Source: Verrucomicrobiota bacterium
Lineage (GTDB): Bacteria > Verrucomicrobiota > Verrucomicrobiia > Limisphaerales > JAIPKD01
Reading direction: 5' to 3'
Assembly: GCA_021733835.1 (NCBI GenBank)
Contig: JAIPKD010000004.1
Span: 1-64,000, forward strand
DNA: 64,000 nucleotides
The translations under genes were made by a program, and so were the position numbers. The notes beneath the pieces are model-generated. The model did no database searches and had not been told where the DNA came from. It saw only the letters and a list, made by a program, of their open reading frames with translations. Numbering within the stretch: the first letter of the stretch is position 1; every line of letters starts with the position of its first letter. Shown here piece after piece: positions 18,054-43,663 of this stretch.

Positions 18054-21000
18054 TCATATCGCAGTCCACTCTTTACAGAGAACCTCCGCCTGCTCCAGAA
18101 CGGTTTGAGTTGCTTTTTCCTGTTTGTCGGGTGGATAGCCGTATTTGCGCAGAATACGTTTCACAATCACCCGTATCTGGGCGCGGGCATTTTCGCGAAC
18201 AGTCCAGTCTATGCTTACGCTCCGCCTGACCGCTTCAACCAGTTCGTGCGCAATCGTCTTCAGCGTTTCATCCCCCAGAACCTTCACCGCACTGTCGTTA
18301 ACCTCAAGCGCATCGTAGAAGGCGATTTCATCATCGGTCATGCCGAGATCATCGCCACGCCGCTGAGCCTCGCGAATTTCCTTGGCTAACTTGATTAATT
18401 CCTCAATGACCTGTGCTGCCTCAATTGCACGATTCTGGTATTTCCGTATGGCCTTTTCAAGCATGTCTGCAAAGGATCGCGCTTGAACAATGTTCTTGCG
18501 AGAATTCGTCTTGATCTCATCGTTCAGGAGTTTTCTCAGTAATTCCACCGCAAGGTTCCGGTGAGGAAGCTGCCGCACTTCCTGGAGGAAGTCATCCGAT
18601 AGTATTGAAATGTCGGGTTTCTTGAGGCCCGCCGCTGCGAAAATGTCGATGACCTCTTCTGAGGCCACGGCCCGAGATACCAGCTGGCGAATCGCGGTAT
18701 CCATCTCTTCGGGGCTCTTGCCTTCGCCTTCAACCGTTGCTTTGGCCAGCCCGGCGCGGACCTCCTGGAAGAATCCCACTTCATCACGAATTTTAAGAGC
18801 TTCCTCGTGCGGAACAGCGAGAGCAAAAGCCTTCGACAGCGCCGTAACTTCTGTCAGATAGCGCTTTTTGCCACCTGTCTGCCGCGTCGCATTGCTTTGC
18901 GGCGCAGGCAGATCCTCCAGTTGAAGAATATGTTCTATGGCGGCCGCAATGCCGGCAATACGCCTGCCTGCGCCGCGCACGTCGCGGCAGGCAGGCTTTG
19001 CCGGTTCTGCTTTGAGAACAGAGGTGTAATCGAAACCGTGGAACATGGAGAGGACAATTTCGAACTTCTCCAACATCACCGCAACGGCTTCTTCCTGGTT
19101 GATGGCCGCCTTGCCGCGGCCGCCCGCTTCGGTATAGTCCGCAAGGGCTCGTTTCAACTGATCCGCAAGGCCGAGGTAGTCAACGACCAGTCCGCCCGGC
19201 TTATCTTTGAACACCCGGTTAACGCGGGCTATCGCCTGCATCAGACCGTGTCCCCGCATCGGCTTGTCGACGTACATCGTATGCAGCGACGGGCAGTCGA
19301 ACCCCGTCAACCACATATCCCGCACGATCACCACCTTCATAGGATCGCTCGGGTCTTTGAACCTCTTGGCCAGGGCCTCACGCCGCGGTTTGCTCCGAAT
19401 ATGGGACTGCCATTCAGCGCGATCAGATGCGGAACCGGACATGACGATTTTCAACACGCCTTTGTCGCCTGCCTGCCGCGACGCTTTGCTTTGCGGCGCA
19501 GGCAGGTCGTCCTCGCTATGCCAATCCGGCCCCAGCTTCACGATGGCGTTGTACATATCCACACAGATTCGACGGCTCATGCAAACCACCATGGCCTTGC
19601 CGTCTAATGCCAGCAGGCGGTCTTCAAAATGGTTCACGAGGTCTTCCGCAACGAGCGAGATTCGCTTTTCCGTGCCGACCATCGCTTCAAGAGCAGCCCA
19701 CTTGGTGCGCAGCCTCTGCTTATAGGACTCTTCCTCCCCCTCGGTGATCTCTTCAAACTCCGGGTCGATTGTCGGCTTTTCCTCTTCCCGCAAATCGATC
19801 TTTGCCAGTCTTCCTTCGTAAAAGATGGGAACGGTAGCGCCGTCTTCGACCGCCCGCAGGATGTCGTATTTATCGATGTAGTCGCCGAAGACCGCCGGCG
19901 TGCTGCGGTCGTCACGTTCGATGGGCGTACCCGTAAACCCAATGAAGGACGCATTCGGCAGAGCGTCGTGCATGTGGCGCGCGAATCCGTCGATGAAGTC
20001 ATACTGACTGCGGTGCGCTTCATCGGCAATGACCACGGTATTCCGACGAGTGGATAGTTCGGGGTATTGCCGGCCCTTTTCGTCAGGCCTGCCTGCGCCG
20101 CGTCCGTCGCGGCAGGCAGGCAGAAATTTCTGAATCGTCGTGAAAACCACCCCGCCTGAAGGAACCTGAAGCAGCTCCTTCAAATGCTCCCGGCTTTCAG
20201 CCTGAACGGGTGTCTGGCGAAGCAGATCACGGCAGGATGAAAACGTGCCAAAGAGCTGATCGTCCAGGTCGTTCCGGTCGGTTATCATCAGCAATGTAGG
20301 GTTTTCCATGGCCGGATGACGGATGATCTTTCCGGCGAAAAACGCCATCAAAAGGCTCTTGCCGCTTCCCTGGGTATGCCAGATTACCCCGATACGGCGA
20401 CCGCCGAAGTGTTCGGTTCCAGAGCCATAAGCGGCCTGCGGATCGCGAACCTCATACGGATTGTACGCGTCATGCTCCGGGAAGCGGGCATACAGCATGT
20501 CCGGCTCAGCTTTTATGCCGCAAGCTGACAGGGCATATTCAACCGCCTTATTCACCGCATGGAACTGGTGATAACCCGCCGCTTTCTTGACAATCGCGGC
20601 ACCATCATCCTCGAACACGACAAAGTTCAATACAAGGTCGAGAAACCGCCGTTTTTCAAAAACACCCTTGAGCAGCACTTCGAGTTCCACCTGTCTGCGT
20701 GCGGACACGCACAGGCAGGCAGAACCTCTCGGAGCGACTTCTTTGCCGTCAATCGTGCGCCACGGCACGAACCGGTCCCATCCGCTGGTGAGCGTCCCGC
20801 CGCGTGCCTCCAGGCCGTCGGAAATGACAAGCAACTCGTTGTAGATGAAGAGACCGGGGATATCGCTTTTGTAGGTTTGAAGCTGGTTGAAGGCATGGCG
20901 GATGGTAGTCTTCTCATCCGCAGGATTCTTGAGCTCGATCACGCCCAGGGGCAGGCCATTGACAAAAACCAGAATATCGGGCCGCCTATTCTTTCGATCC

Positions 21001-21404
21001 TCGATGACGGTGAACTGATTGACAGCGAGCCAGTCATTGTTCTCCAGGTCCCCAAGGTCGAGAAGCCAGACCTTGTCGTGCACCTCGCGGCCGTCCTGCA
21101 TATAGGAGATATCCACGCCATCGGTAAGCATTCGATGGAAACGCTGATTGTTCTCGATCAGGCTGGGTGATTCGGTGCGCGTGATTTTCCGGACAGCCTC
21201 GCCAATGGCATCCGGCGGGATGTTTGAATTGATGTTTTTAAGCGCGATCTGAAGCCTTCCAATCAAGACGACCTGATCGTAATCCTGGCGTTCGCAGGCC
21301 GGACCGTCCGGGCTGATATCAGGGCCGAAGGCGGTCTGCCAGCCGAAAGATTCAAACCAGTCGAGGGCGGTTTGTTCCAGGGTGGTTTCACTCAGACTGG
21401 TCAT
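18054..21404 (-). CDS. hsdR: type I restriction endonuclease subunit R containing in-frame palindromic insertions
   Basis: HsdR_N ([10 protein letters not shown]), [14 protein letters not shown] Walker [22 protein letters not shown] and [39 protein letters not shown] motifs. Confidence 0.96.
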
Positions 21405-31516: not shown

Positions 31517-31858
31517 TTAATTACCTTGCTCTTTATCTTTCGCGCCCGGTACAACGGTCCCTGTTTGCCTTTCCTCCAATTCTTCTATTCTTCTCTTTAA
31601 ATCTCCGATCTCTTGTTCCCGCTCGGCATCCGCCGCCTTTGCCGAAAGATACGAATCTCGCTCCCACCAATCCACACCAAGTTCCTTTGCCTTATCAACC
31701 GACGCAATCATGAGACGGATTTTGATTGTCAGGAGCTCTATATCGGCTATTTGAATCTTTATATCTCCGGCAATAACAAGCCCTTTGTCTAGTACGCGCT
31801 CCAGAACATCGGCCAAGGTCGCGGACTGCAATGATTGAACATTACTTCGTTCTGTCAT
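31517..31858 (-). CDS. gas vesicle protein, GvpA-family minor subunit (GvpJ/S type)
   Basis: TLADVLERVLDKGLVIAGDIKIQIADIELLTIKIRLMIASVDKAKELGVDWWERD. Confidence 0.93.
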   Translation of the reverse strand: MTERSNVQSLQSATLADVLERVLDKGLVIAGDIKIQIADIELLTIKIRLMIASVDKAKELGVDWWERDSYLSAKAADAEREQEIGDLKRRIEELEERQTGTVVPGAKDKEQGN

Positions 31859-31888: not shown

Positions 31889-32431
31889 TTATAGAAGATT
31901 TCCTAATGGCCCGAGGTCAACATTGAGATCTTCATCTTCAATCCCAAAAACCGCCTGGAGTTCTTGAAGTTTTTTACGCATAGCCTTCAGGCTAAGTCCA
32001 AGCTTCTGGATTTCAATGGCCGAGAGAGAACCTTTCTTGACCCTGCGATAGGCTTCTTTTTCCATCAGCTGCCTTATGAGCTCTATGAGCGTTAACACCA
32101 GTTTGGCAATCCCCTTCTCAGCGTTTTCTGGATCGGCTGCATCGATCAGCCGTGGAATATTCCTCTCGGCCTTTCTGATTTCGGCTTGGATTCTCTCTAT
32201 TTCACGTAATTCCTCCGGAGAAGCCTCTCTGTTTGGATCAGTATAACCACGGTGTCCCAGCTCCTCGGCTTTTGATATCGATGTAAGCATAATACGAAGC
32301 CCGGCATAGACCAGATCGACGTCGGCCAGGCGGATGGCAAGTTCGCCCTCTACCACGGCTCCCTTTTCCAGAATTTTATCAAGCGCCTCGACGAGGCTGA
32401 CATTATCAGTTTGCTGAAGTGATCTATTCAT
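31889..32431 (-). CDS. GvpJ/S - GvpK fusion protein
   Basis: N-term SLVEALDKILEKGAVVEGELAIRLADVDLVYAGLRIMLTSISKAEELG (GvpA family) followed in one ORF by NAEKGIAKLVLTLIELIRQLMEKEAYRRVKKGSLSAIEIQKLGLSL...EDLNVDLGPLGNLL (GvpK). Confidence 0.9.
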   Translation of the reverse strand: MNRSLQQTDNVSLVEALDKILEKGAVVEGELAIRLADVDLVYAGLRIMLTSISKAEELGHRGYTDPNREASPEELREIERIQAEIRKAERNIPRLIDAADPENAEKGIAKLVLTLIELIRQLMEKEAYRRVKKGSLSAIEIQKLGLSLKAMRKKLQELQAVFGIEDEDLNVDLGPLGNLL

Positions 32432-33248
32432 TAATATCCCCTAAAGCACTGAAGCTGAAAGGCGCGAGGGGACCGGCACATTCAAGGCTCAACCCCATAA
32501 TTCCGAGCTTTTCATTAAGTTCGCGGATAATATCCAGGAAGGCGTTCAGTTCGTTGTTCTCTACCAAGTATGCCGCATTGAAAACCATGGGTTCGGATCT
32601 GCCTACGATATGCTTATCGAGAACCTCCATGCGCCTCGAATCCGATGCGGCGTCTTCCATTCTTCGGAATATATCCTTGGATATGCGCTCAATTTCCCTA
32701 TCTCGTTCCCGGTCGATAACCTTCTTAAAATCCTGTTCCAGAAAAAACGCCAAACCCTCAGGCTGGTTTGCGATTTTCACCTTTTCAGCGGCGATCTCCG
32801 GATTATGCTCGCATATAACATCATCCAGCGTATCCCTATTAACAAGAAATGCCTTAACGCTTAATTCTTGCTTCCCTCGAAATTTTTCTAAGAGTCGACT
32901 CAAATTCCCGTAATTACGTGATAATATCTGTTCCAGATTGGCGGTACTTTTGAAAATCGTGCCGAAACTCATGGGAACCACACAAACATCACTGCTTCCT
33001 TTTTTAGTAGACTTCTGTATCACCTCGTGGTGTCGAAGGACTTTGCTCTTTATCCAATCCACATCCTCTTTTGCCTTCCTTTGTATCTCCTCAGTACCAA
33101 ATTCATTTTCGGACACCTCACTGATTACGGCTTCTAAACCGCGGAAAGGATAGGAAAAGACACCCTCGTTTTCATCAACACCAATAGCATCAATGGCTTC
33201 ATGGGCCTTGACAAGGTCGCGTATGCAATATAGGTAAATTAGATTCAT
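32424..33248 (-). CDS. gas vesicle protein GvpL/GvpF family
   Basis: YLYCIRDLVKAHEAIDAIG...VISEVSENEFG...VLRHHEVIQKS...VVPMSFGTIFKS...LSLECAGPLAPFSF. Confidence 0.93.
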   Translation of the reverse strand: MNLIYLYCIRDLVKAHEAIDAIGVDENEGVFSYPFRGLEAVISEVSENEFGTEEIQRKAKEDVDWIKSKVLRHHEVIQKSTKKGSSDVCVVPMSFGTIFKSTANLEQILSRNYGNLSRLLEKFRGKQELSVKAFLVNRDTLDDVICEHNPEIAAEKVKIANQPEGLAFFLEQDFKKVIDRERDREIERISKDIFRRMEDAASDSRRMEVLDKHIVGRSEPMVFNAAYLVENNELNAFLDIIRELNEKLGIMGLSLECAGPLAPFSFSALGDINE

Positions 33249-33319: not shown

Positions 33320-35254
33320 TTATATACGGGAAGAACTATAAAGGAGACTGCCAAGACTTGCAAGCCGATCTTCGCCTACTAATCTTGAAGATTGATATAC
33401 AATTGTCTTTTCCACATCCGGAATTTTCTTATCGAATTCTTTCCTAACTACAAATTGATCCTCCATGACAGCACGACATGTAGGACAATTGCTTTCCGGG
33501 ATTACACGATTAAGGAAGAGTGCCGGAATATGAATACCCGTTCGTTTACAGGCATCGACCAGATCAACTATCTCTTCCAATGCCATGTCCGTTGGTATCG
33601 ATACTACGTAAAGGGAAGCTCTGTCCGCATCAGTTAAAATGGATCGTAGATTCTTGATTCTCTTGGAGATCGTCACCAAGAAATCAGAAACCTTTGGTAA
33701 GGAGAGCAGATTTTTGTATTTAAGCAGTAATCCAAATATGACCTTCAACCAATGCTCGACCAACTCGGGAAGTTCCAATAACCGGATTAAATGTCCCGTG
33801 GGCGCTGTATCCAGAACGAACTTATCGTATTCATTTTGTTCCATCAGCTCCACGATCCTGGAGAGTGCAATTACTTCATCCAGTCCCGGAGGAGAAAGAT
33901 CGAGAATATTCTCGATAACCTCCCTATCAAATTGCAAATCAACCTTCCCGCCGCCTGTCAGTGACCGGAAAAACTCCGCCACATCCTGTGCATAAATCTC
34001 TTTGAGCTGAGTAAACTCTGCGTGAGCGTTGAGTTCAATAGCCGTCAAACCAGGACGTACTTTAATCGGTTTCGCCCTAATGTGGGTATCTAAACAGTCC
34101 GACAACGAGTGAGCAGGGTCGGTCGAGAGTATCATCACTTCGCCTGCGCTGGATTCGTCGGCCAATCGTACTGCCGTAGCGCACGCGAGGGTCGTCTTTC
34201 CCACTCCCCCTTTTCCTCCAAAGAGCAACAATGACTGATGTCCACCCGGAAATGGCGCAGGATTATCAACTCTCTGTCGGGATACCTGACTTGTTTGTAT
34301 TGTATCTGAAATCTTTTCAGGCTTTCTTACCTGATCCCAAAAACTTGAGAGGCGTTTGGCGCCCTGAACCTGGGCCCCCATGAGCGGAACGCTCCATAAC
34401 GAGTAATCCGCAATATATTCGTCTGTAATACGCTTTAGGCAATCATACTGCTCTACGTATGCGTTATGACATACGGAACAGTTGTTGTCATCCAGGTATA
34501 CCCTGTTGATTATTATTTCACATACAGGGATTTCCATACGCTTCAGTGCGTCCACCAGATCTCTGGTCTCCGGTATACTCATCGGATCAGGTGCTGTCAC
34601 CGGCACAAAACGACATTCTTTGGAATTCTTCAGTTTTTTTTGCAAGTGCTCTATATTTGCGCTCAGTTCATCCAGGAATTCATCGGTCTGATCCTTACGG
34701 TAACTACCGCGAAAAAGCATTACCATATAACGGTGCTTTGCGAGCATAGCGTCGAGAGCTTTAACCCATTTTTCCATTATATCGGGAAGCTCCATGAATC
34801 GAAGCACATGCCCCGTCGGCGCACTGTCAACAACGATACATGAATAATCAGTAGTATCAACCAAGTGGGCAATTCGAGTAAATGCCATTACTTCGTCGAG
34901 TCCGGGCATTGAAAGTTCAAGCAACTGACTTATATCTTCGTTATCGAGGAAGGTACCCCTTTGCGCTATCTGCTGCAATTGCTTCTCATGCTTGGATTTA
35001 AATTCCATTAAACTAGCTGAAGCATCGAGTTCATCAAGTTCCAGGTTGCGAGGCAGTACGGAATTTGCGAAGCTGTCTTTCAATGAATGCGCCGGATCAA
35101 TGGAAACAACCAATATTTTTTCATCGGGGCGCTGGCATGCCAAGCTAAGTGAGGTAGCGGCGGCACAAGTGGTTTTACCGACTCCTCCCTTGCCGCCGAA
35201 AAGAATTAAGGATAAGTTCTTATCAAATAAAAAAGAAGGCAGTTGTCGCTCCAT
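33320..35254 (-). CDS. tandem ArsA/GET3-family ATPase
   Basis: Two P-loops (LILFGGKGGVGKTTCAAATSLSLA and LLLFGGKGGVGKTTLACATAVRLA), two GLDEV(M/I)A and VLDTAPTGHLIRLLELPE motifs, and a CxxC in each half (NCSVC, NCPTC). Confidence 0.94.
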   Translation of the reverse strand: MERQLPSFLFDKNLSLILFGGKGGVGKTTCAAATSLSLACQRPDEKILVVSIDPAHSLKDSFANSVLPRNLELDELDASASLMEFKSKHEKQLQQIAQRGTFLDNEDISQLLELSMPGLDEVMAFTRIAHLVDTTDYSCIVVDSAPTGHVLRFMELPDIMEKWVKALDAMLAKHRYMVMLFRGSYRKDQTDEFLDELSANIEHLQKKLKNSKECRFVPVTAPDPMSIPETRDLVDALKRMEIPVCEIIINRVYLDDNNCSVCHNAYVEQYDCLKRITDEYIADYSLWSVPLMGAQVQGAKRLSSFWDQVRKPEKISDTIQTSQVSRQRVDNPAPFPGGHQSLLLFGGKGGVGKTTLACATAVRLADESSAGEVMILSTDPAHSLSDCLDTHIRAKPIKVRPGLTAIELNAHAEFTQLKEIYAQDVAEFFRSLTGGGKVDLQFDREVIENILDLSPPGLDEVIALSRIVELMEQNEYDKFVLDTAPTGHLIRLLELPELVEHWLKVIFGLLLKYKNLLSLPKVSDFLVTISKRIKNLRSILTDADRASLYVVSIPTDMALEEIVDLVDACKRTGIHIPALFLNRVIPESNCPTCRAVMEDQFVVRKEFDKKIPDVEKTIVYQSSRLVGEDRLASLGSLLYSSSRI

Positions 35255-37898: not shown

Positions 37899-38807
37899 CT
37901 ATTGTTTCACCAGTTTCTTGGCGTATCCAATCCATTTACTTACATTCTCCTCGGAGGCTACGCTCATATCCGAAAGTTTTTCGCATAGTTCAGCGGTATT
38001 GGAAGTCGCTAACTGATTGTAAGTATAAATGCCGGCATCCTCATTGAGACGCTCCTGTGTTTTTGCCCCTATACCCTTTATAACGGTCAGATCATCCTGA
38101 AGAGTTTCCGCTTTCTCTTTTTTGGGTTTCACTCGTTCCGGAGTCTTCTTTTTTGTTGGTGTCCGCCTTCCCACGGCTGTATCTACAACACCCAAGAAAG
38201 CTGAACGCGCTGATTTCAAGTCCGATGCCACTTCTCCACAGATTTCTTCGACGCTCTTCGCAATGTTAGATATAAAGTCCGCCCGCTCTTTGGCTGCAGC
38301 TTCGCCCATTTCTTCTCTTGCATCGCGATATCCGTCGCATAAGTCCGTTACATAGGATTGTAGCTCAGACATGAATCCTTGAAGCTCGTTTCTTGTCTGT
38401 TCAGCCGTCTGCATATGATTGTCTCGAATCTGTTGCTGTAAGCGCCTGGTTTGAGTCGTTAATTCCTTAACCTTCTCATCCAGCCCCTTTATAAAAGCAG
38501 ATCGTTCCGATCTCCCGGATTCAGCGGCTTCAACAAGCTCATCCCTGAATCTATGGCACATATCCTTTGCTTCGGATTGAATCCGCCCGACTTGCCGGCG
38601 TAATCCGCGAATAAATTCCTCCCTATTTTTCTCTAAATATTCCCTTGTCTCCGCCCTACCCTTATTTGCTGATTCTACGATAAATCTTGCATTTTCCTTG
38701 ATTTGCTCGACATCATCGGCAAGCCTTACTCTTAATTCCGTCCTGTTTTCATGGAGTCCGCGAATCTCTTCCGACAACCGCAACATATCTTGTGCTAGAG
38801 TACCCAT
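37899..38807 (-). CDS. coiled-coil protein with C-terminal helix-hairpin-helix-like domain; candidate GvpC analogue
   Basis: Degenerate 36-40-aa repeats (REEFIRGLRRQV, RSAFIKGLDEKV, RADFISNIAKSV) and DDLTVIKGIGAKTQERLNEDAGIYTYNQLA; directly downstream of gvpA. Confidence 0.6.
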   Translation of the reverse strand: MGTLAQDMLRLSEEIRGLHENRTELRVRLADDVEQIKENARFIVESANKGRAETREYLEKNREEFIRGLRRQVGRIQSEAKDMCHRFRDELVEAAESGRSERSAFIKGLDEKVKELTTQTRRLQQQIRDNHMQTAEQTRNELQGFMSELQSYVTDLCDGYRDAREEMGEAAAKERADFISNIAKSVEEICGEVASDLKSARSAFLGVVDTAVGRRTPTKKKTPERVKPKKEKAETLQDDLTVIKGIGAKTQERLNEDAGIYTYNQLATSNTAELCEKLSDMSVASEENVSKWIGYAKKLVKQ

Positions 38808-38932: not shown

Positions 38933-39151
38933 TTATGCAGGTTGCGCCGCAGTGGCTGTCAACCCAACGGCTTCCGCATACTTAAGATACGTCTCGACGG
39001 AAGCGATTACGACACGGGCCTCCACAGAAAGCAATTCGATGCCTACTAATGAGACTTTAGCCCACGCATCAATGACAATACCCTTGTCAAGAATTCGGTC
39101 AACAACTTCTGCCAAGCTAGCGCTACTTGTTGTTTTTTGTACTTCAGCCAT
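38933..39151 (-). CDS. gvpA: major gas vesicle structural protein
   Basis: [53 protein letters not shown], canonical GvpA. Confidence 0.98.
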
Positions 39152-39238: not shown

Positions 39239-39254
39239 AGCAATAAGGATGCCA
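39239..39254 (-). promoter_or_regulatory. sigma54 -24/-12 promoter of gvpA
   Basis: Minus strand TGGCATCCTTATTGCT; GG and GC separated by exactly 10 bp, about 90 bp upstream of the gvpA ATG. Confidence 0.88.
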
Positions 39255-39364: not shown

Positions 39365-39403
39365 TATGGAATTCATTCCATACACTATGGAATTCATTCC
39401 ATA
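39365..39403. promoter_or_regulatory. two tandem palindromic activator sites (putative UAS)
   Basis: TATGGAAT-TC-ATTCCATA at 39365-39382 and 39386-39403, starts 21 bp apart, about 110 bp upstream of the -24 element. Confidence 0.75.
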
Positions 39404-39529: not shown

Positions 39530-41680
39530 TTATGTATTCGAATCGTGTCTTTGGAGGTATTTATTATCCCCGACTGCTTTAATCGCCCTTTCAATGTGGC
39601 GCGGTTCTATTTGCAGCCTTTTCGGACCTCTGTCTTTAATGTTCACGATCAATTCACGGATCGCGTCTATTGCGGATTCGTTACAGACTGCATGTATTTC
39701 GGCGCCGGAAAAACCTTCGGTGCTTTCAGCCAGACTGAGGATATCCACATCTTCGCAAATGGGCTTTGGTTTCAGCCAAATCTCGAATATTCTCCTTCGA
39801 CTTTCGATATCCGGCAAAGGAATCTCCAACACCATATCGAAACGCCCTGGTCGTAAAAGAGCTGTATCAAGCAAATCGGGACGGTTCGTAGCGCCGAGCA
39901 CAAAAACTCCTTCCAACAACTCGATACCATCCAGCTCGGTCAAAAACTGACTGATGACACGTTCAATCACCCTAGAGTCCGAACCGCCGCATCCACGACC
40001 GGGCACCAAGGCATCGATCTCATCAAAAAAAACAATACATGGAGCAGCCTGTTTGGCTTTTCTGAATAGATCTCTGACCGCTTTTTCAGATTCGCCGACG
40101 TACTTGGATAGCAAAGACGGGCCTTTAACGGAGATAAAGTTCACTTCGGTTTTCTTAGCCAGCGCCTTCGCCAGCAGCGTTTTGCCACATCCGGGTGGAC
40201 CCGACAGTAAAATACCTTTTGGTGGTGTTACGGCCGCTTCTTTAAAAAGTGCGGGGAATTCTATCGGCCACTCGACACATTCCAAAAGCCGTTGTTTGAT
40301 CTCACTCAGGCCACCCACCTGCGTCCAATCCACCTCCGGCACTTCAGTGAATACTTCACGAATGGCCGAGGGTTCGACTTCCCTTAACGCCTCAACAAAG
40401 TCGGCCATATGAACCCGTAGATGTGAAAGCGTTTCGTAAGGTATCTCTGCAAGTTCAAAATTGATATCCGTCATGATATGCCTCAGACAGATCATGGCGG
40501 CTTCTCTACATAATGCCTCAAGGTCCGCTCCGACGAATCCATGGGTTATGGATGCCACACGTTCAATGTCAACGTCATCATCGAGCGGCATGCCGCGTGT
40601 GTGTCTCACCAATATTTCTTTTCTGCTTTCCCTGTCGGGAATTGGAATGACAATTTCACGATCGAAACGCCCCGGTCGTCGAAGGGCCGGATCGATTGCA
40701 TTGGGAATATTCGTCGCTGCAATTACAATCACCTGCTGGCGTTTGGCCAATCCGTCCATAAGCGCCAGCAGCTGGGCCACGACGCGTTTTTCCACATCAC
40801 CTACTACCTTTTCGCGATGCGGAGCAATTGCATCGATTTCATCAATAAAAATAATACTGGGTGCCTTTTCGGCCGCCTTCTTGAAGAAACTTCGCAGGTG
40901 AGCCTCACTCTCGCCATAAAACTTGTGTATTACCTCGGGGCCGTTGATAGAGAAAAAAGTGGCCTCTGTCTCATGCGCTACGGCCCTGGCAAGCAACGTC
41001 TTACCACATCCGGGCGGCCCTATCATTAAAACGCCTTTTGGTGGGTCAATGCCCAAACGTTCGAAAACTCGCGGATAACAAAGCGGCAGTTCGATTATTT
41101 CACGAATCCTTAGAATCTCACGCCCCAACCCCCCGATATCCTCATAACAAACGGTTTGCTTGGTCTCCGCCTCACCTACCTTGCCTATGCGAAGTTTAGT
41201 GGTGGGATTAATTACCGCCGGACATTTATTACCGACCTCGACTACTTTAAAATCCGCCGAGCGGGTACCGAATAACGTCACGCGAACACGGTCTCCGACC
41301 ATAACCGGTAATCCGTCCAATAGACCGCCGATATATTTTAAGTCTCGCTCAGAAGGACTGATAGTAATCGGGGAAAGCACTACCAGACTTGCGGGATTCG
41401 CTTCCGCCTTACGTACCTGAACATGCTGATCGAGTGCCGTACCGGCATTGTCCCGTGAGATTCCATCTATTTGCAAACAAGACCGACCGCGCACCTCTTT
41501 ATATGCCGGCATGGCCTTGCAGACGGTTTTCCTTTTGCCCAAGACCTCGATGATATCGCCTATATTCACGCCCAGGGCTTCTATATCGGAAGGGTCCAGT
41601 CGCGCAAACGCTCTTCCAACGTCCTTACCGAGGGCTTCGGAAACCTTGAGTTTGAGCACCTTTTCTTCCGTAGCGATCAT
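39530..41680 (-). CDS. CDC48/VCP-like double AAA ATPase
   Basis: N-domain plus two AAA modules ([60 protein letters not shown]). Confidence 0.95.
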
Positions 41681-41691
41681 TTCATCCGATG

Positions 41692-42219
41692 TTATTTACT
41701 CAACTTCACTTCCATAATCCCATTACGGCATGAATAAGTCATCTGATCCATTGAGAAACTTGCTGGAAGCAACACTTCTTTCCGATATTTCTTCTGACCT
41801 TTCGCCGCGGACAATGTCAAAATGTCGCCATGCAGTTTCAAATCAACATCTTGTTCACCTATCCCCGGCATCTCGGCAACGACCAACACGTATTTACCTT
41901 CATCAAACACGTCAACCAAAGGTTCGGTTATTTCACTGACGACCGTTTCCCCGGTGTTTTCGTCTTCATGCACATTACCGAAAGGTTCTATATTGACATC
42001 TTGCTTTCCAAGGCCGGTTTTCACGCGAAAACCATACACACCTCGCACTTTACCTTGTGACCCTTGAAATTCGCCGGTTTTTTTCAATTCCTCTCCTTTT
42101 TCTGCGAGATCTCCGAGCTTCTCGAGCAAATTACTCAGCCCGTCCAGAAATCCCTTGGCTCCGGAGGGTGTTTCTTTCCGGCTGTCTTTCTCTTTATTCT
42201 CTTCACTATCATCATTCAT
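41692..42219 (-). CDS. Hsp20/GvpH-like protein
   Basis: EPLVDVFDEGKYVLVVAEMPGIGEQDVDLKLHGDILTLSAAKGQKKYRKEVLLP...NGIMEVKLSK with acidic/GvpH-like N-terminus. Confidence 0.85.
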   Translation of the reverse strand: MNDDSEENKEKDSRKETPSGAKGFLDGLSNLLEKLGDLAEKGEELKKTGEFQGSQGKVRGVYGFRVKTGLGKQDVNIEPFGNVHEDENTGETVVSEITEPLVDVFDEGKYVLVVAEMPGIGEQDVDLKLHGDILTLSAAKGQKKYRKEVLLPASFSMDQMTYSCRNGIMEVKLSK

Positions 42220-43663
42220 TTGTATTCCTCCCGTTTTTTATTTGCTCAATTGAAATTATGTATCTTTTGACCTTTGAATGAACTGTTTTGTAATCGGTCT
42301 CCAATATCCTTGCTGCTTCAGCCATGTTCCCACGTGTTTTTTTTAATGCATGTACAAGAGCCTTCTTCTCAATCTGTTCAATCGCGCCCTTTTTTAACTC
42401 GCTAAGCGAGTTCTCTCCGATAACCCGAATTCCAAAACTCGCGTCCAATGTCTTTACAGGTTCGGATTCACGTGAAATATCCAAGTCATTTTCTTCGATG
42501 ACATTGTTATCACATCTTAAAACCGCTCGGCGTATAACATTACGTAATTCACGAATATTGCCCGGCCACTCATGTGACATTAAGATTTCCTGTGCCTTAT
42601 CGGATATCCCCTTTATATCTTTATTTAGTTCAAATCTACATTGATCTGTAAACCTTTTTGCAAGGAACCTAATGTCCTCACGGCGTTGCCGCAAGGGGGG
42701 CACGTCTATCTCAAATTCGCTCAGCCGATAGTATAAATCGCGTCGAAATTCCCTGTTTCTTACCATTGCAGATAGACTGCGATTGGTGGCGACAATAATC
42801 CGAATATCCACACTTATCGGCTTGTTGCCTCCTACTCTGACAACAGTTTTTTCTTGAAGCGTTCGGAGGAGTTTAGGCTGCACCTCTGAAGGTAGATTCG
42901 ATATCTCGTCAAGAAAAAGCGTTCCATCCGAGGCGGCCTCAAATTTACCGGGATGCCGAGAAGTAGCCCCCGTAAACGCGCCTTTCTCGTGACCGAACAA
43001 TTCGCTTTCAAGGAGTGTCGGCGCAATTGATCCACAGTCTACCGGAATGAATAAACCATTCTTCCGCTGGCTCCTCTCATGAATCGCACGAGCCACAACT
43101 TCTTTACCCGTACCGGTCTCACCGCTAATGATGACTGTGTAATCCGTCGGCGCCACAAGTTCCACTTGTGAGGTAATCTCGCGCATCGTCAAGCTAATGC
43201 CCAGATGCTCCCATGGCTTACATTGGTCTTCTGCAGAATGATAAACATCATCACATTGCGGCTTTCCTTTCCGGACAGCCCTGTTTATCACATCTCGTAG
43301 TTTTTCGCTATCAAACGGCTTACATAAGAAGTCAAAAGCCCCTAGTTTCATCGATTCAACAGCCGTCTCAATAGTCCCAAATCCGGAAATGACAATTACC
43401 GGTATATCGGAATCGATTTTTTTAACCTCCTTGAGAACTTCCATCCCCCCAATATCGGGCATTATCAAATCGAGAAAAATGAAATCTATGGTTTCAGCGT
43501 CACGCAATGTCATCAAGGCCTGTTCTCCACTACAGGCCTCAATTGATGCCATTCCAACGTTTTCTACGAAAGCACATAGAGTCTTCCTTACGCTATCATC
43601 ATCGTCCACGATCAGCACTCGGGCGGGAGACATACTGTCAGCGGTTGAACGCATAACCAACAA
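42212..43663 (-). CDS. NtrC-family sigma54-dependent response regulator
   Basis: Receiver (VLIVDDDDSVRKTL...FIFLDLIMPDIGGMEVL), AAA+ (ISGETGTGKEVVARAIHERS, SELFGHEKGAFTGAT), Fis-type C-terminus (TRGNMAEAARILETDYKTVHSKVKRY). Confidence 0.96.
   Translation of the reverse strand: MLVMRSTADSMSPARVLIVDDDDSVRKTLCAFVENVGMASIEACSGEQALMTLRDAETIDFIFLDLIMPDIGGMEVLKEVKKIDSDIPVIVISGFGTIETAVESMKLGAFDFLCKPFDSEKLRDVINRAVRKGKPQCDDVYHSAEDQCKPWEHLGISLTMREITSQVELVAPTDYTVIISGETGTGKEVVARAIHERSQRKNGLFIPVDCGSIAPTLLESELFGHEKGAFTGATSRHPGKFEAASDGTLFLDEISNLPSEVQPKLLRTLQEKTVVRVGGNKPISVDIRIIVATNRSLSAMVRNREFRRDLYYRLSEFEIDVPPLRQRREDIRFLAKRFTDQCRFELNKDIKGISDKAQEILMSHEWPGNIRELRNVIRRAVLRCDNNVIEENDLDISRESEPVKTLDASFGIRVIGENSLSELKKGAIEQIEKKALVHALKKTRGNMAEAARILETDYKTVHSKVKRYIISIEQIKNGRNTNE

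What the first reader, a model, noticed from the sequence alone, without database searches (positions are those of the whole stretch)
31889..32431. GvpA-family (J/S) domain fused to GvpK in a single polypeptide
Seen: one uninterrupted 180-aa ORF with a GvpJ/S-like N-terminus (LVEALDKILEKGAVVEGELAIRLADVDLVYAGLRIMLTSI) and a full GvpK C-terminus (...EDLNVDLGPLGNLL). Established: J/S and K are normally separate, often adjacent genes. Inference: the fusion fixes stoichiometry and suggests J/S and K act at the same site in vesicle nucleation. I am not aware of a described fusion but cannot search.
Basis: partly seen in the sequence, partly recalled or inferred. Interest (0 to 1): 0.75.

Follow-up and report, generated by a model that had tools for sequence, protein, structure and literature searches.

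The report
Fused gas-vesicle assembly protein GvpS–GvpK
Two small helper proteins that bacteria need to start building gas-filled flotation vesicles are encoded here as one joined protein, and the same joining has arisen several times in other bacteria, which suggests the two normally work side by side at the same step.

Summary
12–50, 49.8 bits) and a complete GvpK (PF05121, res. 99–180, 100 bits). The N-domain is GvpS-type, not J: it scores 72 vs 50 bits against profiles of genes just upstream vs downstream of gvpK, and a separate gvpJ follows. The order L–[S-K]–J matches the usual L-S-K-J order. The genome has no other GvpK and no other S-type domain.

The fusion is not unique. In systematic samples it is found in 6 of 7 assessable GvpK genomes of the window's own order and 9 of 46 in Chloroflexota, but 0 of 8 in a hyphomicrobial order and 0 of 5 elsewhere in the phylum. 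It also occurs on a Methylosinus plasmid, auto-named "gvpJ". Trees reject a single origin. Unfused S and K genes usually overlap or are separated by one in-frame stop, so one mutation joins them. I found no paper describing the fusion.

An assembly indel in this MAG is unlikely but not excluded. Most likely role: a tethered 1:1 S–K assembly factor in vesicle nucleation (inferred). Undescribed but recurrent; moderate interest.

The parts
31889..32431 (-). gvpS–gvpK fusion gene, 180 aa: S-type PF00741 domain (res. 12–50), linker (about res. 55–98, which carries a stretch like the native N-terminal helix of GvpK), GvpK domain (res. 99–180)
   Evidence: Pfam 49.8 and 100 bits; S-type by profile comparison; no internal start in the linker; AlphaFold2 model
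31517..31858 (-). gvpJ, separate GvpA-family gene directly downstream
   Evidence: PF00741 65 bits; J-position profile 125.8 bits vs S-position 60.8
32424..33248 (-). gvpL, directly upstream, overlapping the fusion gene by 8 nt
   Evidence: PF06386 171 bits
33320..35254 (-). two-domain ArsA/Get3-type ATPase of gas-vesicle clusters
   Evidence: PF02374 410 bits, two stretches; same association described in PMC2963123
35313..35636 (-). gvpG
   Evidence: PF05120 45.2 bits
35557..36345 (-). gvpF
   Evidence: PF06386 216.8 bits
36792..37805 (-). gvpN (AAA ATPase)
   Evidence: TIGR02640 328.8 bits, over cut-off
38933..39151 (-). gvpA, major shell protein, 72 aa
   Evidence: PF00741 hit at 39002–39118, one of three in the whole genome
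39530..41680 (-). CDC48-family AAA ATPase of the gas-vesicle cluster
   Evidence: TIGR01243 870 bits, over cut-off
41692..42219 (-). GvpH/Hsp20-like protein
   Evidence: its relative on the Methylosinus plasmid is annotated gvpH

Best explanation
The gene encodes a genuine GvpS–GvpK fusion that replaces the separate gvpS and gvpK of a conserved L-S-K-J block. Shown: both domains are present in one frame, there is no second copy of either in the genome, and the same fusion is found in many other gas-vesicle clusters, having arisen more than once. Inferred: the hydrophobic S domain (an alpha-beta-beta-alpha GvpA-like fold) engages growing or nascent shell edges while the tethered helical GvpK domain engages GvpL and other factors. 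The chain would thus deliver S and K in a 1:1 ratio to the early 'seeding' complex with J, L and A. It likely arose by loss of the stop/start boundary between overlapping or abutting gvpS and gvpK genes.
For: Domain hits. Single GvpK and three PF00741 domains (A, S-K, J) in the genome. S-type N-domain in the window and in all other fusions. Own order: fused in 6 of 7 assessable GvpK genomes. Chloroflexota: fused in 9 of 46, including sister species that share it. Methylosinus plasmid fusion in a complete record. Nearly all fused clusters with both flanks visible keep [S-K]–J, most with gvpL upstream and those of the own order with ArsA upstream. Tree: fusions clustered, yet one clade rejected (AU p 0.0001); window groups with two fused Chloroflexota (92/92). 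Unfused S/K pairs mostly overlap or are in frame across one stop (13 of 59). AlphaFold model: alpha-beta-beta-alpha N-domain, helical GvpK; best PDB matches of the N-domain are gas-vesicle shell proteins (weak). Literature: S, K and J all needed for A2–L contact and all GvpS fusions tolerated (PMC11445434); N-tagged S and C-tagged K still make vesicles, S/K overlap by 47 bp (PMC11223475).
Against: No expression, protein or vesicle data for this uncultured organism. Read-level support was not available; a one-base shift near 32,240 would give two overlapping genes of normal form. The AU test disfavours common descent with the own-order fusions (p 0.02), so those do not directly vouch for this copy. 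The AlphaFold S domain and linker join have low confidence (pLDDT about 51–68; pTM 0.52). The 1:1 delivery and the contact sites are inference.
Confidence: 0.72

Rival explanations
1. Assembly or sequencing indel: the true genome has separate, overlapping gvpS and gvpK, and one missing base near 32,240 joins them in this MAG.
For: gvpS and gvpK often overlap out of frame. A one-base change near 32,240 would give an S stop and a K start in the expected place, and the same-order relative L093 has K starting MIDPNR where the window reads YTDPNR. Exactly such a one-base difference fuses S and K in Rhodococcus JCM 9791 relative to a close relative.
Against: Ten other genes of the window (about 17 kb) are open along their frames, and those that meet a curated single-gene model cover it nearly end to end. 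The fusion architecture is independently present in many genomes, including two Chloroflexota to which the window's S-K is closest. No run of one base lies at the junction. No start codon survives in the linker, so the change would have to fall at one particular spot.
Confidence: 0.1
2. Fused, but functionally only a passenger: joining is neutral because S and K overlap and tolerate tags, and the product may be cut into S and K.
For: Long, variable, mostly P/S/G-rich linkers of 28–103 residues in other fusions; S and K tolerate tags (PMC11445434, PMC11223475); the boundary is one mutation from joining.
Against: Fusions persist across families of the own order and across sister Chloroflexota, and recur. 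In the window the linker is short and contains a predicted helix (res. 72–91).
Confidence: 0.18

Closest known systems
GvpS and GvpK of Bacillus megaterium (pNL29 cluster, genes overlapping by 47 bp)
   Same: Same two families, same order L-S-K-J, same neighbours (N, F, G, L, J); S and K both essential (PMC11445434, PMC11223475)
   Different: Two separate proteins there; one polypeptide here; the window also has ArsA-type and CDC48-type ATPases
'GvpJ' WP_142864684.1 of Methylosinus sp. C49 plasmid pMSC49b
   Same: Single polypeptide with S-type domain plus GvpK, followed by a separate gvpJ, Hsp20/GvpH and CDC48 gene
   Different: 219 aa, very divergent GvpK, longer linker; mis-named by automatic annotation
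S-K fusions of Chloroflexota (e.g. L030, L128) and of the window's own order (e.g. L140, L143)
   Same: Same architecture within [S-K]–J; L030 and L128 also share gvpL directly upstream and group with the window in the tree
   Different: Linkers of 28–103 residues, mostly disorder-like; own-order fusions lie directly behind the ArsA gene and form another branch

Membership tests
GvpK (PF05121) | Match above curated cut-off over the full domain | tested here: met
   100 bits vs 25, profile 4–85/85
Gas_vesicle GvpA/J/S family (PF00741) | Match above curated cut-off over the full domain | tested here: met
   49.8 bits vs 25, profile 1–39/39
GvpS subtype | Closer to genes immediately upstream of gvpK than to gvpJ | tested here: met
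   72.2 vs 49.6 bits; the adjacent gvpJ scores 60.8 vs 125.8
GvpS subtype | Essential for vesicle formation with K and J | not testable with these tools
   Only known from B. megaterium (PMC11445434, PMC11223475)
Functional gas-vesicle cluster | gvpA plus N, F, G, L, S, K, J all present | tested here: met

The most novel reading that the evidence does not exclude
S–K fusion is a recurrent solution maintained by selection because S and K act as an obligate 1:1 unit at the vesicle seed; the natural fusions therefore mark S–K as the core nucleation factor of gas vesicles, which is not described in the papers searched.
Probability: 0.4. Interest if true: 0.6.

Novelty: new variant of a known kind. 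Interest (0 to 1): 0.42.

Why it matters
How gas vesicles are seeded is the least understood step of their assembly, and GvpK is essential with no known role (PMC11445434). Repeated natural fusion of GvpS to GvpK is independent evidence for the proposed S-K-J seeding group. It also gives a single-chain reagent for locating K by cryo-EM and for simplifying vesicle gene sets used in ultrasound imaging. It warns annotators too: such genes are auto-named gvpJ, and some apparent fusions may be frameshifts.

Tried and rejected
N-domain as GvpJ or GvpA: rejected by profile scores. A single ancient fusion: rejected by the AU test (p 0.0001). Common descent with the own-order fusions: disfavoured (p 0.02), but long branches limit this. 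Rhodococcus JCM 9791 as supporting evidence: set aside, since one base separates it from an unfused close relative. Nonomuraea and Spartinivicinus plasmid hits looked like fusions in tblastn but have a stop between S and K. Fusion in a hyphomicrobial order: none in 8 GvpK genomes. Long branches of fused GvpK domains: not used, because the 80 loci were chosen by similarity to a fused query. PHROGs gave nothing for the fusion. Papers: no description of the fusion among gas-vesicle papers; only a GvpK–haloacid-dehalogenase link is mentioned in PMC2963123.

Full report
Observation. The 180-aa product has PF00741 at residues 12–50 (49.8 bits, cut-off 25) and PF05121 at 99–180 (100 bits, cut-off 25); both profiles are covered nearly end to end. 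Between codon 48, inside the first domain, and codon 112, inside GvpK, there is no ATG, GTG or TTG in frame, so separate translation of GvpK from this frame is not expected.

Setting. All genes of the cluster lie on the minus strand: a sigma-54-type response regulator (42212–43663), an Hsp20/GvpH-like gene (41692–42219), a CDC48 ATPase (39530–41680), gvpA (38933–39151), a coiled-coil protein (37899–38807), gvpN, a small coiled-coil gene, gvpF, gvpG, a two-domain ArsA-type ATPase, gvpL, the fusion, and gvpJ. The fusion starts 8 nt inside gvpL. The whole genome (2.84 Mb, 114 contigs, 91.9% complete) holds one GvpK and three PF00741 domains: gvpA, the fusion and gvpJ. If the cluster works, the fusion must supply both the S and the K function.

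S, not J. I made profiles from 30 loci with three genes in the order S-K-J, using only the unfused genes. The window's N-domain scores 72 bits with the upstream (S) profile and 50 with the downstream (J) profile; the window's downstream gene scores 61 and 126. All other fusions found also carry S-type N-domains.

How common. A scan of genome contigs gave 80 loci; among them four fusions, in Chloroflexota (L020, L030, L085) and Rhodococcus (L022), with a further one on a Methylosinus plasmid (L007). These loci were ranked by similarity to a fused query, so I counted in systematic samples instead. Own order: 320 genomes, 8 with GvpK, of which 6 fused, 1 separate (L093) and 1 cut by a contig end. 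The rest of the phylum sample: 5 with GvpK, none fused. Chloroflexota: 350 genomes, 46 with GvpK over the cut-off, 9 fused; one of the 46 was not read. A hyphomicrobial order: 397 genomes, 8 with GvpK, none fused.

Origins. On a tree of S plus K domains (68 rows, 18 fused), fusions are clustered, but well-supported branches force at least four changes of state; one clade of all fusions is rejected (AU p 0.0001). The window groups with fused Chloroflexota L030 and L128 (support 92/92, not conclusive), and not with the own-order fusions (AU p 0.02). L030, L128 and the window share L–[S-K]–J. Long branches make exact placement unsure.

How it arises. In 59 unfused adjacent S/K pairs, 13 are in the same frame with a stop between; most others overlap by a few to tens of bases. 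One substitution or one indel joins them. Rhodococcus JCM 9791 differs from its unfused relative by one base just before the K start and may be an error. The window linker contains a stretch that resembles the native N-terminus of GvpK of Lentisphaerae relatives (…SPDEFIKEIEKIQ… vs …SPEELREIERIQ…), so little or nothing of GvpK was lost.

Is this copy an artefact? A single-base shift near 32,240 would restore two overlapping genes of ordinary form; I cannot see reads. Against this, ten other genes of the window (about 17 kb) are unbroken, the junction is not a homopolymer, and the nearest relatives in the tree are fused too. I put the artefact at about 10%.

Structure. AlphaFold2 with 80 rows gives mean pLDDT 76 and pTM 0.52: helix 13–23, strands 25–35 and 38–49, helix 52–61, linker helix 72–91, GvpK helices 101–133 and 138–162. 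Confidence is high in GvpK and low in the S domain. The best PDB matches are the gas-vesicle shell proteins 7r1c and 8gbs, weak (E 0.07 and 0.28); the same two are the only hits by sequence. No chain annotated as GvpK appeared in either search.

Mechanism. Published work in B. megaterium shows that GvpS, GvpK and GvpJ are each needed for the contact between shell protein A2 and GvpL, and proposes these three as seeding factors; all GvpS fusions allowed vesicles (PMC11445434). N-tagged S and C-tagged K also allow vesicles and bind them weakly (PMC11223475). An S–K chain leaves exactly those two ends free. The likeliest role is therefore a single-chain seeding factor. Equal supply of S and K, and the contact sites, are inference.

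Novelty. Both families and their gene order are known; the fused chain is recurrent in public genomes and I found no paper describing it in the library searched, which lacks most subscription journals. The organism is a MAG whose phylum, by one shared genome (G052 carries the same DNA as Lentisphaerae GWF2_38_69), includes Lentisphaerae, i.e. probably Verrucomicrobiota in GTDB terms.

Noticed in passing
39239–39254 (-) and 39365–39403: A sigma-54-type -24/-12 site (TGGCATCCTTATTGCT, 1 mismatch) lies about 90 nt upstream of gvpA, with two perfect copies of the palindrome TATGGAATGAATTCCATA 21 bp apart behind it and nowhere else in the window. With the NtrC-type regulator at 42212–43663 this looks like an enhancer-controlled gas-vesicle promoter.
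   Followed up: partly
37899–38807 (-): Coiled-coil protein between gvpA and gvpN with imperfect internal repeats of about 33–40 residues and a C-terminal helix-hairpin-helix-like stretch; possibly a GvpC-like outer shell protein with an odd tail.
   Followed up: partly
18054–21404 (-): HsdR-like gene carries at least four GC-rich palindromic stretches (35 and 52 nt families) that stay in frame and add peptide repeats such as LPAPQS..TRQ; one of the two motifs occurs only twice in the whole genome, both here.
   Followed up: partly
33320–35254 (-): Two-domain ArsA/Get3-type ATPase inside the gas-vesicle cluster, next to S/K in several genomes of the phylum; association noted in PMC2963123, function unknown.
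   Followed up: no
L022:2974-3504: Rhodococcus sp. JCM 9791 S–K 'fusion' differs from Rhodococcus sp. ARC_M6 by one missing base at the junction; probably a sequencing error or a very recent frameshift.
   Followed up: yes
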